This document shows positions 4,213-12,842 of a stretch of DNA of 64,000 nucleotides, in pieces. The stretch comes from Euzebya pacifica (GTDB lineage: Bacteria > Actinomycetota > Nitriliruptoria > Euzebyales > Euzebyaceae), in the NCBI RefSeq assembly GCF_003344865.1, contig NZ_CP031165.1, positions 4,841,910 through 4,905,909 on the forward strand, read 5' to 3'. Below the pieces are notes generated by a model, which saw only the letters and a program-made list of their open reading frames with translations, did not search any database and was not told where the DNA came from. The stretch's first letter is position 1. Every line of letters begins with the position of its first letter. Both the position numbers and the translations under genes were made by a program.

Positions 4213-5829
4213 ATGGATTACCTGGGCCAGCACATCGGACGAATCGTCCGCGAACGGGCCAGCACGTCACCCGACGTGCCGGTCGTCACGATCAGCCCGG
4301 ACGGGGCGGAACCGGGGACCCCCGGCGTCCCGATCACCTACGCCGAGCTGGACGACCGGACCGAGGTCATGGCCGCCGCCCTGACCCGAGCGGGGGTCAC
4401 GAAGGGCGATCGGGCCGCGGTGATGCTGGCCAACGGGCCGTCGTTCGTGCACAGCTGGATCGGCATGGCGAAGGCGGGCGTGGTCGAGGTGCCGCTGCAC
4501 ACCGCATCGCGAGGCGACGGGCTGCGCCACGCCCTGGGCCTGACCGGCGCATCGCTGGCCGTGGTCGACGAGCGGGCGCTGCAGCGCATCGGCGATGTGG
4601 CCCACGACCTGCCGTCGTTGCGGACGCTGGTGGTCTGCGGTGACCCGGACGATCTGCCCGGTCGGGTCGGTGGCGCCGACGTGGTGTCCATGTCGGACTT
4701 CGTGCACGGCGTCCGGCCGGGGCCGGCGGTGGACGTGGCGGACACCGATCCATCGGTGGTGCTGTTCACCTCGGGCACGACCGGTCCGTCGAAGGGTGTC
4801 GTGCTGTCGCATCGGGCGAACACCCGGCTGGCGTGGTCGGTGGGGCAGGGCGCCGGCTTCCAGCGAAGCGAGGTGCTGTTCACGACCTTCCCGTTGTTCC
4901 ACGTCGCCGCCCGATACGTCTCGACCCTCGCGGCGATGCTGGTGGAGGGCCGCGTCGTCATCCGCGAACGCTTCTCCGCCAGCCGGTTCTGGGAGGAGTG
5001 CGCAGAGGAGGGCGTGACGGCCGTGCACTACCTGGGCTCGCTGCTCACGATGTTGCTCAAGCAGCCCGCCCGGTCGGTGGACAGCGGCCACGGGGTGCGG
5101 GTGGGGTACGGGGCGGGTGCACCCAAGCCGGTGGCCGAGGCGTTCACCGAACGGTTCGGGGTGCCGCTGCACGAGCTGTACGGCATGACGGAGACGGGCG
5201 CGGTGACGATGAACCGGGCCGGCGCGTACCGGCTGGGCTCGTGCGGCACGGCGCTGGAGGACTGCGAGGTCGCCGTGGTCGGTGCCGATGACGAGGCGTT
5301 GCCTGCGGGCGAGGTCGGGGAGATCGTCACCCGCCCGTCGGTGCCACACATCATGATCGAGCAGTACGAGGGCATGCCCGAGGCGACGGTGGACGCCTTC
5401 CGGAATCTCTGGTTCCACACCGGCGACCGGGGCTGGCTGGACGCCGACGGCTTCCTGCACTTCGTCGGCCGACAGAAGGACGCCATCCGGCGGCGGGGCG
5501 AGAACGTGTCGGCCTTCGAGGTCGAGGTGGTGCTGGAGGATCACCCGTCGGTGGCGGGCAGCGCCGTGGTCGGTGTGCCCGACGAGATCAGCGGCGAGGA
5601 GATCCTGGCCTACCTGGAGCTGCGCGAGGGGGCGGTTCTGGACGTCGCGTCGGTGCTGGACCACTGCCAGACCCGCCTGCCCCACTTCGCGGTCCCCCGC
5701 TACGTCGCTGCCGTGGCGTCCCTCCCCCGCAACACCTCCCAGCGGGTCCAGAAGCACCTCCTGGACGTCTCCGCCACCGCGGACGGCGTCGTCGACCGCG
5801 AGGCGATCGGCTACGTCGTCACCCGCTGA
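4213..5829 (+). CDS. Acyl-CoA synthetase (AMP-forming), FadD type
   Basis: This 538-residue enzyme is an ANL-superfamily ligase that activates a carboxylic acid to its CoA thioester through an acyl-adenylate. The AMP-binding P-loop TSGTTGPSKG lies near residue 186, the A5 motif YGMTETG near residue 322, and the C-terminal hinge and lid region contains WFHTGDRGWLDADGFLHFVGRQKDAIRRRGENVS. The catalytic lysine region near the C-terminus reads LPRNTSQRVQK. The head MDYLGQHIGRIVRERA resembles crotonobetaine/carnitine-CoA ligase relatives. It is transcribed divergently from the SnoaL-liv operon across operator 1, so import and activation are probably co-induced. It is one of three such ligases in the cluster. 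Confidence 0.92.
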   Translation: MDYLGQHIGRIVRERASTSPDVPVVTISPDGAEPGTPGVPITYAELDDRTEVMAAALTRAGVTKGDRAAVMLANGPSFVHSWIGMAKAGVVEVPLHTASRGDGLRHALGLTGASLAVVDERALQRIGDVAHDLPSLRTLVVCGDPDDLPGRVGGADVVSMSDFVHGVRPGPAVDVADTDPSVVLFTSGTTGPSKGVVLSHRANTRLAWSVGQGAGFQRSEVLFTTFPLFHVAARYVSTLAAMLVEGRVVIRERFSASRFWEECAEEGVTAVHYLGSLLTMLLKQPARSVDSGHGVRVGYGAGAPKPVAEAFTERFGVPLHELYGMTETGAVTMNRAGAYRLGSCGTALEDCEVAVVGADDEALPAGEVGEIVTRPSVPHIMIEQYEGMPEATVDAFRNLWFHTGDRGWLDADGFLHFVGRQKDAIRRRGENVSAFEVEVVLEDHPSVAGSAVVGVPDEISGEEILAYLELREGAVLDVASVLDHCQTRLPHFAVPRYVAAVASLPRNTSQRVQKHLLDVSATADGVVDREAIGYVVTR

Positions 5830-5850
5830 TCCCGGAACGGATCGGCGGGT
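5821..5850. terminator. Bidirectional hairpin between convergent genes
   Basis: ACCCGCTGATCC and GGATCGGCGGGT form a 12-bp stem with a single T-G wobble and a 6-base loop. It includes the stop codon of the ligase and lies just before the stop of the convergent UGSC gene. No U-tract follows, which is common in actinobacteria. Confidence 0.6.
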
Positions 5851-5854
5851 TGGG

Positions 5855-6385
5855 TCAGGTTGAGAGGCGGGCGGCGACGTCTGGGGCGAAGCGGTCGGCG
5901 AGGGCCTGCAGCGCCGCGTCATCCTTGGTGGACACCGGGTGGGGAACCATGACCGTGGGGTAGGCGGGCGCGCCGAGGGTTGCCCCGAAGCGGGCGGCCA
6001 GGCCCTGGAAGGGCTCGGTCATGACGAGCGTGGCGGGGATTCCCAGCCGCTCGAACTGGACGGAGTCGTGCAAACTGCACGCGGTGCACGCACCTCAGTC
6101 ACCGAGGCCGGAGATGACCAGGTGCGAGCGGGCCGCCAGCATCCGGGTCACGTCGGCGTCCAGCGGGGCACCGGCAGAGGGTTTGGTGTGGACCTCGACG
6201 TGGGCGACGCCCAGGAGGTCGCGGAGCCGCTCGCCGATGTGGCTGAGCAGCGCCTTGGCGTTGGGCTTGCCGTTGTCGACGACGAGCAGCCGGGCGTCGG
6301 TGGGAAGGGGGACGCGGGGGGCAAGCTCCAGCGCGTCGGCAGCGGCGTCGGCCATGTCGGGCCGGTGGACGCGGATAACGGTCAC
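5855..6385 (-). CDS. UGSC-family (seleno)protein with in-frame TGA, putative selenocysteine 97
   Basis: Read from GTG 6385 to TGA 5855 this is a 177-codon frame interrupted only by TGA at 6097-6095 (codon 97). Upstream of it the protein reads VTVIRVHRPDMADAAAD ... LVISGLGD. Downstream, in the same frame, it reads GACTACSLHDSVQFERLGIP. The joined motif GD-U-GACTACSxHD matches the known UGSC family, where U is Sec or Cys in a [UC]G[SA]C redox-like motif. No ATG or GTG start with a ribosome site precedes the downstream half. The GTG start overlaps the stop of the upstream partner as GTGA, so the two are translationally coupled. Function is unknown; a thiol or selenol redox role is inferred. The alternative is a true stop and a pseudogene. 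Confidence 0.8.
6067..6097 (-). promoter_or_regulatory. Putative bacterial SECIS element after the in-frame TGA
   Basis: Directly after TGA the mRNA-sense strand carries GGTGCGTGCACC (5-bp stem, 2-base loop). Next comes CGTGCAGTTTGCACG, a perfect 6-bp stem with loop GTT at 6067-6081. The first loop G lies 20 bases after the TGA. In the E. coli fdhF SECIS the loop GGUC starts 19 bases after UGA and is also closed by a GCA/UGC stem. The bulged U of the E. coli element is not present. Confidence 0.55.
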
Positions 6386-7503
6386 GGCCGCTCCTCCCCC
6401 ACTGGCGGGAGGGTGACCTCGCAGCCGTCGGGGCCGCAGTCGGGCAGCGCCTCGCCCGGCGGGCGGACACGCCGGCTGACCGCACGGGCCAGGGCGACGT
6501 CGACCGGGGCCCACGACGGGATGTAGGCCGACCAGCCCGCCCCGGCGCCGCCGGCGGTCACGACGAACACGTCGTCGGGGGTCGGCACGGTCGCAAGCTT
6601 GCCGTCCGCCCCGGGAACCAGGTCGTGGGAGCTGCCCTCCGGCAGGTCGATGCCTGCCGCCAACAGCTCGTCGGGGGTGATGCGTGAGGCCTCGGCGAGG
6701 AACTCCTGGACGTCGCGGCGACTCCAGCCGGCCTCGACGACGGCGAGCTGGTGTTCGTGGCCGAGGACGACGACGCCCTGGCCACCCTTGCCGGACACGA
6801 AGTTGGAGGGGACCTTCATCGCGGCGGCGAAGGTCAGCAGCAGGCGTTCGGGGTCCTCGACCAGGTGGTTGGCGACCTGCCGGGGCCCCTCGCTGGGCAC
6901 GACGGTGACCACGGTGTCGTCGGGAGCGAAGCCGAGGTCGGCGGCCAACGGTTGCCACGGCGAACGCGGCGGGTCCTCGGCGAAGCAGAGGGTGTACTTG
7001 CCGGGGTGGCCCATCGAGCTGCCGTCGAGCCCACCGCTCTTGGCACCGAGCACGTTGCTGGCCACGAGGCGGAGCGTCCGGCCGATCGTGGCGTTGGCGC
7101 GGTTGCCCGAGCCCAACGCGTTGTGCGTGCCGTTCATCCCCACCTCGCGGGCCATGGGGCCGCTGACGATGGTGCAGATCGCGGCGCCGCCGGTGCTGGT
7201 GGTGGCGGTGTGGGCGTTGAACGCCGGGTCGAGCATCGCCGACACCCCGGCGATGACGATCGGGAAGTACTCCGGCTTGCAGCCGGCCATGACGGCGTTG
7301 ATGGCGGCCTTCTCGACCGTGACGGCGATCCCGCGCTGAGGGACGGTGCCGAGGACGTCGTCGGGGTCGGTCACCCCGGCGGCCAGCATCATGTCGAGGA
7401 CACGGTCGGGGGTTGGGGGGACGATCGGCAGGCCGTCGGTCCACCCCTCCTCGAAGAAGCGTTCCTGCACGTCGACGTCATCGATCTCGATGAGGTCCGT
7501 CAT
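6382..7503 (-). CDS. Conserved protein of unknown function, partner of the UGSC protein
   Basis: This 373-residue protein has no domain I can name. It begins with an acidic helix, VQERFFEEGWTDGLPIVPPT, followed by a strongly patterned segment MAGCKPEYFPIVIAGVSAM and a Gly/Asn-rich stretch with NGTHNALGSGNRANATIGR. Near the C-terminus is DCGPDGC, a Cys pair. It is soluble, with no signal peptide. ATG 7503 has GGAGGAGAAGG upstream. Its 4-base GTGA overlap with the UGSC gene suggests a stoichiometric complex in which this large subunit may bind the substrate and the small subunit supply the selenol. That is inference. Operator 2 lies directly upstream and its end forms the -10-like TAGTAT. Confidence 0.75.
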   Translation of the reverse strand: MTDLIEIDDVDVQERFFEEGWTDGLPIVPPTPDRVLDMMLAAGVTDPDDVLGTVPQRGIAVTVEKAAINAVMAGCKPEYFPIVIAGVSAMLDPAFNAHTATTSTGGAAICTIVSGPMAREVGMNGTHNALGSGNRANATIGRTLRLVASNVLGAKSGGLDGSSMGHPGKYTLCFAEDPPRSPWQPLAADLGFAPDDTVVTVVPSEGPRQVANHLVEDPERLLLTFAAAMKVPSNFVSGKGGQGVVVLGHEHQLAVVEAGWSRRDVQEFLAEASRITPDELLAAGIDLPEGSSHDLVPGADGKLATVPTPDDVFVVTAGGAGAGWSAYIPSWAPVDVALARAVSRRVRPPGEALPDCGPDGCEVTLPPVGEERP

Positions 7504-11585: not shown

Positions 11586-12842
11586 TCAGGACGCCGGAAC
11601 CGCGTCGTGTGCGACCGGCAGCGACTTCAGCGCGCGGGACGCCAGGCTCGGCACGTACTCCAGGGTCGCGTCGTCGGCCAGGCGCAGGCCGGGCAGCCGC
11701 TCGACGATGCTCTGCAGCATGTGCCGCATCTCCAGCCTGGCCAGCTGCGCTCCGATGCAGGCGTGGATGCCCCGTCCGAAGGCGACGTGCCGGTTGGGAT
11801 GGCGGGTGATGTCCAGCGACCCGGCGTCGTCGAAGTAGTCGGGGTCGTGGTTGGCCCCGGCCAGCGCGAGGAAGATCCGGTCGCCCGCCGGGACCGTCAC
11901 CCCGTCGAGCTCGATGTCCTCCAGCACCCAGCGCACCAGCACCTTGATCGGCCCGTCGATGCGCAGCAGCTCCTCCACCGCCTTGGCGGCCATGTCGGGG
12001 TCCTGCCGCATCGCCTCCATCTGCTCGGGGTTGCGCAGCAGGGCGAGCACGCCGTTGGCGGTGGCGTTGATGGTGGTCTCGTGGCCGGCGAACAGCAGCA
12101 GCGCCAGCATGCTGAGCAGCTCCTGGTCGTCCAGCCGGTCGCCGTCCTCGACGGGGGCGGCGAGGGCGCTGATCATGTCCTCGCCCGGTTCGGCACGGGC
12201 GGCGTCGACCAGCCCCTGCAGGTAGGCGAACATCTCCTCGATACCGCGCAGCGCCCGTTCGTGGCGGTCACCGCGTGCGGCCCCGCCGGCCCCGAAGGCG
12301 ACCAGCGCGAGCTCGTCGGACCATGCGCGGAAGCGGTCCTGGTCCTCCAGCGGCACACCCATCATCTCGGCGATGACGGCGGCGGGCAGCGGGTAGGCGA
12401 CGTGGTGGATCAGGTCCCGTTCACCGGAGGCGATGAAGTCGTCGAGGATCTGGTCGACGCGGGCCTGGATGGCCTCGCCCATGAGGCTGATCCGCTGGCC
12501 CTTGAAGGCTCCGGCGGCGAGCTTGCGCAGGCGGGTGTGGGCGGGCGGGTCGGACACGACCATCCACGACTTGAGGATCTCCAGGATCCGCGAGGCCGAC
12601 GACTCCTCCCCCGGGGCGTCCTCGGCACGGGCCCGGGCCAGCACCGGCGCGACGCGGTCGGAGGACAACCGGCGGTCGGTCAACGCCGACTCCACGTCGC
12701 GGTAACGGGCGACGATCCAGGCCTGGTGGCGGTCGGACCACACCGCCGGGGCGGTGTCGCGGAGCGCCTGCATGGTGGCGTAGGGGTCCTCGGTGGCCTC
12801 GGGGGACAGCAGGTCGACGTCGTCGAGCGCGGTCGTGGTCAT
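11586..12842 (-). CDS. Cytochrome P450 monooxygenase
   Basis: This 418-residue soluble bacterial class I P450 shows the I-helix oxygen-binding motif FAGHETT, the K-helix ExxR in EELLRIDG, and the heme-binding FGRGIHACIGAQLAR with Cys-362 as thiolate ligand. It hydroxylates a substrate using electrons from a ferredoxin and ferredoxin reductase. A Rieske ferredoxin is encoded at 14079 in the same operon, and a FAD ferredoxin reductase at 15252 in the divergent operon. No dedicated 3Fe-4S ferredoxin lies beside it, so it may use the Rieske protein or a remote partner. It sits between the LLM and TIM-barrel genes. Confidence 0.95.
   Translation of the reverse strand: MTTTALDDVDLLSPEATEDPYATMQALRDTAPAVWSDRHQAWIVARYRDVESALTDRRLSSDRVAPVLARARAEDAPGEESSASRILEILKSWMVVSDPPAHTRLRKLAAGAFKGQRISLMGEAIQARVDQILDDFIASGERDLIHHVAYPLPAAVIAEMMGVPLEDQDRFRAWSDELALVAFGAGGAARGDRHERALRGIEEMFAYLQGLVDAARAEPGEDMISALAAPVEDGDRLDDQELLSMLALLLFAGHETTINATANGVLALLRNPEQMEAMRQDPDMAAKAVEELLRIDGPIKVLVRWVLEDIELDGVTVPAGDRIFLALAGANHDPDYFDDAGSLDITRHPNRHVAFGRGIHACIGAQLARLEMRHMLQSIVERLPGLRLADDATLEYVPSLASRALKSLPVAHDAVPAS

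What the first reader, a model, noticed from the sequence alone, without database searches (positions are those of the whole stretch)
5855..6385. Probable selenoprotein: UGSC-family gene read through an in-frame TGA
Codon 97 is TGA. The protein on both sides continues the same family (GD-U-GACTAC-SLHD). A hairpin sits right after the TGA with its loop at +20. Standard gene callers would give two broken halves.
Basis: partly seen in the sequence, partly recalled or inferred. Interest (0 to 1): 0.85.

Follow-up and report, generated by a model that had tools for sequence, protein, structure and literature searches.

The report
UGSC-family selenoprotein with obligate partner
The gene does use its internal TGA to insert selenocysteine, as a member of a selenoprotein family known since at least 2008, and here the family turns out to be tied to a conserved partner protein and related at its active site to the selenoenzymes that cut glycine and proline.

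Summary
Confirmed. On the minus strand, 6385..5855 encodes a 176-residue UGSC-family protein (Pfam PF24696, 1.5e-44) with TGA at codon 97. The genome carries tRNA-Sec(UCA), SelA, SelB and SelD. All 25 strong homologues in the class have one in-frame TGA. Cys homologues (42-46% identical, C at that exact position) fall inside the window's own clade. The hairpin (loop at +20) is supported by compensatory changes across homologues and by a codon signature: 22/22 Sec genes use AGT/GGT at the loop codon against 0/14 Cys genes (p = 2.6e-10). Single-sequence folding alone did not support it. It is a new member of a known selenoprotein family of unknown function.

Added here: (1) all 68 UGSC loci have a partner gene adjacent or fused; in the window it is 7503..6382, overlapping UGSC by GTGA, with no Pfam, NCBIfam or PDB sequence match. 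(2) The Sec-bearing half is homologous to the C-terminal domain of GrdB-type reductases, Sec on Sec (hhalign P = 4e-8; decoys no better than 0.02). (3) The predicted fold is flavodoxin/CheY-like. Best reading (inferred): Sec subunit of a two-component reductase in an aerobic catabolic cluster. Substrate unknown.

The parts
5855..6385 (-). UGSC-family selenoprotein gene, 176 aa with Sec97; GTG start 6385-6383, stop TGA 5857-5855
   Evidence: translation with TGA=U; PF24696 1.5e-44; the start aligns with the ATG of the 80%-identical homologue L028
6095..6097 (-). Sec codon TGA (codon 97)
   Evidence: TGA in 25 of 25 class homologues; Cys in 43 others
6067..6081 (-). SECIS-like hairpin: 6-bp stem CGUGCA/UGCACG, loop GUU at +20 to +22
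   Evidence: covariation on 23 homologues; loop-U codon signature 22/22 vs 0/14
6086..6088 (-). Cys100 of UxxC, proposed resolving cysteine
   Evidence: invariant in alignments A1 and A3
6382..7503 (-). partner gene, 373 aa; stop codon overlaps the UGSC start (GTGA, 6385-6382)
   Evidence: adjacent or fused in all 68 UGSC loci; no Pfam, NCBIfam or PDB sequence match
4213..5829 (+). acyl-CoA ligase (AMP-binding), convergent neighbour; context only
   Evidence: PF00501 2.4e-65
11586..12842 (-). cytochrome P450; context only
   Evidence: PF00067; a P450 also lies near Cys homologue L049
12890..14005 (-). luciferase-like (LLM) oxidoreductase; context only
   Evidence: PF00296; one also lies next to partner-UGSC in L049
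15249..16487 (+). ferredoxin--NAD reductase-like; context only
   Evidence: a Pyr_redox_2 reductase also lies near L049

Best explanation
A genuine selenoprotein of the UGSC family. UGA97 is decoded as Sec by SelB and tRNA-Sec, directed by a short hairpin whose loop starts 20 nt downstream (strongly supported by computation, not measured). The protein is probably the Sec subunit of a two-component enzyme whose other subunit is the 373-aa partner, co-translated through a GTGA overlap. Inferred mechanism: Sec97, at the N-terminus of the helix after strand 3 of a flavodoxin-like domain and homologous to the catalytic Sec of GrdB-type reductases, acts as a selenolate that attacks a polarised carbon-heteroatom bond (or a sulfur substrate) held by the partner, and Cys100 resolves the adduct to a selenenylsulfide that a thiol donor re-reduces. 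The setting is an aerobic catabolic cluster (acyl-CoA ligase, P450, LLM oxidoreductase, ferredoxin reductase). Substrate unknown. Sec decoding alone I hold at about 0.97; the confidence given is for the whole statement including the mechanism.
For: Sec decoding: family match across the TGA; full machinery; 25/25 class homologues with one TGA; Cys at the same position in 43 loci, with Cys forms L047-L049 nested among Sec forms in the window's clade, support 0.92-0.999; hairpin covariation, 91.8% cells paired and 0/500 shuffles as good; loop-U codons AGT/GGT in 22/22 Sec vs 0/14 Cys genes, p = 2.6e-10, AGT being 2 of 147 Ser codons in sampled window genes. Geometry fits published rules: 16-37 nt between UGA and apical loop (PMC10778597), 5-6 bp stem and invariant loop G (PMC4607533). 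Two-component: partner present in all 68 loci, fused in many. GrdB-like chemistry: hhalign P 4e-8, score 60.1 vs best of 60 column shuffles 22.6 and reversed 21.6, Sec aligned on Sec. Fold pLDDT 95. Shared P450/LLM/SDR/reductase neighbours in Nocardioides soli.
Against: No expression, Se-labelling or enzyme data. The window's stem is 6 bp where most relatives have 8, and is not stable alone. Beyond the Sec domain the GrdB analogy fails: no STUG serine, partner unrelated to GrdE (hhalign P 0.58). One Sec-type genome (G044, 71% complete) shows no selA and one (G020) only a fragment. The catabolic context rests on proximity in few genomes.
Confidence: 0.55

Rival explanations
1. Selenoprotein yes, but the Sec works as a general thioredoxin/peroxiredoxin-type thiol redox catalyst (UxxC redox motif), as the literature suggests, not as a GrdB-like bond-cleaving subunit.
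For: UxxC motif invariant; the 2008 ocean survey suggested a Trx-like fold (PMC2398784).
Against: Predicted fold is (beta-alpha)5 flavodoxin/CheY-like with high confidence; the sequence homology found is to GrdB; the fixed association with a 373-aa partner is unlike a free-standing thiol redox protein.
Confidence: 0.3
2. TGA97 is a real stop or a disabling mutation; the gene is a pseudogene or two broken halves.
For: Single-sequence folding gives no significant hairpin; no protein data.
Against: Same TGA in 25 of 25 homologues across the class, Cys at that position elsewhere, full Sec machinery, codon and covariation signature.
Confidence: 0.02
3. TGA is read as another amino acid (altered code or non-Sec suppressor).
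For: None beyond the open frame.
Against: UGSC and its partner themselves end in TGA; the tRNA with TCA anticodon is tRNA-Sec; homologues carry Cys, the usual Sec counterpart.
Confidence: 0.02

Closest known systems
UGSC family (seleno)protein (PF24696, NF041046; UGSC-containing protein of the 2008 Global Ocean Sampling survey, PMC2398784)
   Same: Domain, Sec position, UxxC, existence of Cys homologues, association with a second domain (the survey reported a UGSC/Unknown_1 fusion; I did not see its alignment, so identity with the partner here is likely but not tested).
   Different: This copy reads UGACTAC rather than UGSCTSC, keeps the partner as a separate upstream gene, and falls 5 bits under the NCBIfam cut-off.
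GrdB/PrdB, Sec subunits of glycine and D-proline reductase (PF07355 and relatives)
   Same: Homologous Sec-bearing C-terminal domain: UGxCTxC, ExxGIP, PHP; Sec on Sec.
   Different: No GrdB N-terminal domain, no STUG serine, partner unrelated to pyruvoyl subunit GrdE, aerobic catabolic surroundings.
FarB/FarE fluoroacetate-dehalogenating GrdB/GrdE homologues of Synergistota (PMC10838667)
   Same: Precedent for a GrdB-type Sec proposed to attack a C-X bond with a partner that lacks the pyruvoyl group.
   Different: Anaerobic; FarE is a GrdE homologue, the partner here is not.

Membership tests
UGSC family selenoprotein | match to PF24696 above curated cut-off over the whole domain | tested here: met
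   152.6 bits vs 25, residues 6-175
UGSC family selenoprotein | match to NCBIfam NF041046 above its naming cut-off (a threshold for automatic naming, not a biological feature) | tested here: not met
   120.1 vs 125 bits, E 7.5e-35: a near miss; Pfam, the Sec position and the tree place it in the family
UGSC family selenoprotein | Sec or Cys at the UxxC position across homologues | tested here: met
   TGA in 25/25, Cys in 43/43; the Cys scan pattern required Cys, so its 43/43 is by construction
bacterial selenoprotein gene | Sec machinery in the same genome | tested here: met
   tRNA-Sec TCA, SelA, SelB, SelD
bacterial selenoprotein gene | SECIS hairpin 16-37 nt from UGA to loop, 5-6 bp stem, loop G | tested here: met
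   19 nt, 6 bp, loop GUU; conserved with covariation
bacterial selenoprotein gene | Sec present in the protein | not testable with these tools
   needs 75Se labelling or mass spectrometry
GrdB/PrdB reductase subunit | homologous Sec-bearing C-terminal domain | tested here: met
   hhalign P 4e-8 vs decoys no better than 0.02
GrdB/PrdB reductase subunit | serine of the STUG motif before Sec | tested here: not met
   GDUG/ADUG in alignments
GrdB/PrdB reductase subunit | pyruvoyl-type GrdE partner | tested here: not met
   partner vs GrdE hhalign P 0.58; PrdA not tested
thioredoxin-like fold protein | Trx fold | tested here: inconclusive
   model is (beta-alpha)5; top PDB matches are flavodoxin/CheY/PurE-like, Z about 9-11

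The most novel reading that the evidence does not exclude
UGSC plus its partner is an undescribed class of two-subunit selenoenzyme: an offshoot of the GrdB lineage, with a new substrate-holding subunit in place of GrdE, that reductively cleaves carbon-heteroatom bonds in aerobic catabolic pathways of Actinomycetota and Proteobacteria.
Probability: 0.4. Interest if true: 0.75.

Novelty: new member of a known kind. Interest (0 to 1): 0.45.

Why it matters
UGSC is one of the commoner bacterial selenoprotein families in aquatic metagenomes, and a 2026 review counts it among selenoproteins whose functions remain largely uncharacterised. A fixed partner gene and homology at the catalytic Sec to glycine/proline reductase give a concrete test: co-express the two proteins and look for reductive bond cleavage. 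The loop-codon signature (AGT/GGT at Sec+7) is a simple way to tell Sec from Cys genes in GC-rich genomes.

Tried and rejected
Rfam RF00031 in the genome: no match, uninformative, as it also rings in no control. Single-sequence folding as evidence for the SECIS: not significant, not used. PDB sequence searches for UGSC, partner and GrdB: no credible match. Partner as GrdE-like or GrdB-like: rejected. Partner fold: weak Foldseek similarity to class I fumarate hydratases (E 2e-3, TM under 0.3; VIA Z 5.9 over 99 residues): too weak to use. My first reading that L048 and L049 are partner-UGSC fusions was wrong (different frames); only the order UGSC-partner is seen fused. PF07355 in the window's genome and six others holding UGSC: no GrdB found. 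Strict link between Sec machinery and Sec: Sec-type genomes have selA more often (12/14 vs 6/21, p = 0.0016), but some Cys-type genomes (two Nocardioides) have it too.

Full report
OBSERVATION. Window 6385..5855 (minus) translates, with TGA read as U, to 176 residues with U at codon 97. Pfam UGSC covers residues 6-175 at 1.5e-44; NCBIfam NF041046 gives 120.1 bits, just under its cut-off of 125. The GTG start overlaps the stop of the upstream gene (GTGA) and aligns with an ATG in the 80%-identical homologue L028.

SEC MACHINERY. The genome (6.37 Mb, two contigs) has tRNA-Sec (65 bits; ARAGORN: tRNA-SeC, anticodon tca), SelB (306 bits), SelA (453 bits) and SelD (385 bits), each over its curated cut-off. 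A second UGSC gene, also with one TGA, lies at C1:268886-269383.

HOMOLOGUES. In 66 genomes of the class, 14 hold UGSC genes above cut-off, 25 genes in all, each with exactly one TGA, each at the UG(S/A)C position. In the reference genome collection the scan pattern, built with Cys, found 43 Cys-type relatives, all with DCG(S/A)C at that position. This scan could not find Sec types, so the numbers do not give a Sec/Cys ratio. In a tree, the window, L030, L028, L037 and L029 (Sec) and L047-L049 (Cys, Nocardioides and Conexibacter) form one clade with support 0.999, the Cys forms inside it. Sec-to-Cys exchange at one position within a clade is the classical sign of a selenoprotein.

SECIS. The 42 nt from the TGA show a conserved hairpin, consensus GUCGUGCA-GUN-UGCACGAC. 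In 23 sequences 91.8% of cells pair, four pairs have changes on both sides, and 0 of 500 shuffles reach the covariation score; slid registers are far lower. RNAalifold finds the inner six pairs unaided. Since the stem is coding, Cys homologues serve as control: they form 5.2 of 8 pairs on average against 7.4 in Sec genes, and pair only 14% at the innermost position against 88%. The codon whose last base is the loop U is AGT or GGT in 22 of 22 Sec genes with Ser/Gly there and in 0 of 14 Cys genes (AGC or TCG), p = 2.6e-10; genes are related, so the p value overstates independence, but AGT is 2 of 147 Ser codons in sampled window genes. The window's stem is 6 bp, not 8, as GCG replaces TCG. Spacing and loop G fit published bacterial SECIS rules.

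PARTNER. The 373-aa upstream gene (7503..6382) has relatives next to, or fused to the C-terminus of, UGSC in all 68 loci examined. It has invariant residues including D23, G24, P26, N69, G74, R142, E176, W183 and near-invariant C75 and C173, no Pfam, NCBIfam or PDB sequence match, and only weak fold matches (model pLDDT 82.5). A UGSC/Unknown_1 fusion was reported in 2008; it is probably this domain.

RELATION TO GrdB. Full-length GrdB-type sequences from Clostridia, read through their own TGA, show STUGTCTRCGAT...E-ERxGIP...P(H/Y/F)P. The Pfam GRDB model ends just before the Sec, which may be why the link is invisible to hmmscan. hhalign aligns UGSC residues 80-176 with this region, P 4e-8, score 60.1; reversed profile 21.6; best of 60 column-shuffled profiles 22.6; GrdE 23.0. 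I found no mention of this link in the papers searched, which are open-access only and were searched by term, not read in full.

FOLD AND MECHANISM. AlphaFold gives pLDDT 95 and alternating beta-alpha order with Sec97 between strand 89-95 and helix 98-113 (modelled with Cys in place of Sec); best PDB matches are flavodoxin/CheY/PurE-like. GrdB binds substrate and releases its amine, and FarB is proposed to attack a C-F bond with its Sec. By homology, Sec97 is proposed to be a nucleophile and Cys100 to resolve it. Shown: the sequence homology, the fold prediction, the partner association. Inferred: bond cleavage, substrate held by the partner, catabolic role from shared neighbours (P450, LLM oxidoreductase, SDR, ferredoxin reductase in the window and in Nocardioides soli).

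VERDICT. The gene is a new member of a known selenoprotein family; what this work adds is that the partner is present at every locus examined, and the GrdB link.

Noticed in passing
G000 C1:268886-269383 (L022): A second UGSC gene with in-frame TGA in the same genome, from another branch of the family, with its own partner gene upstream.
   Followed up: partly
L023, L039, L042, L045, L046 (one genome, G057); L029, L040, L043 (G045): Some genomes carry three to five UGSC-partner sets, in one case three on one contig, as if each set served a different substrate.
   Followed up: no
L048:3892-7242: Conexibacter carries a second UGSC-like gene (5627-6190) and partner (6190-7242) directly behind the first pair.
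   Followed up: no
L090-L106: The Pfam GRDB model (PF07355) stops immediately before the Sec codon, so the catalytic domain of GrdB is missing from it.
   Followed up: yes
window 7503..6382: The partner family has invariant motifs across several phyla but no Pfam or NCBIfam match; its top structural matches, all weak, are class I fumarate hydratases.
   Followed up: partly
L054: A haloarchaeal MAG contig carries a Cys-type UGSC gene and partner; could be transfer or mis-binning.
   Followed up: no
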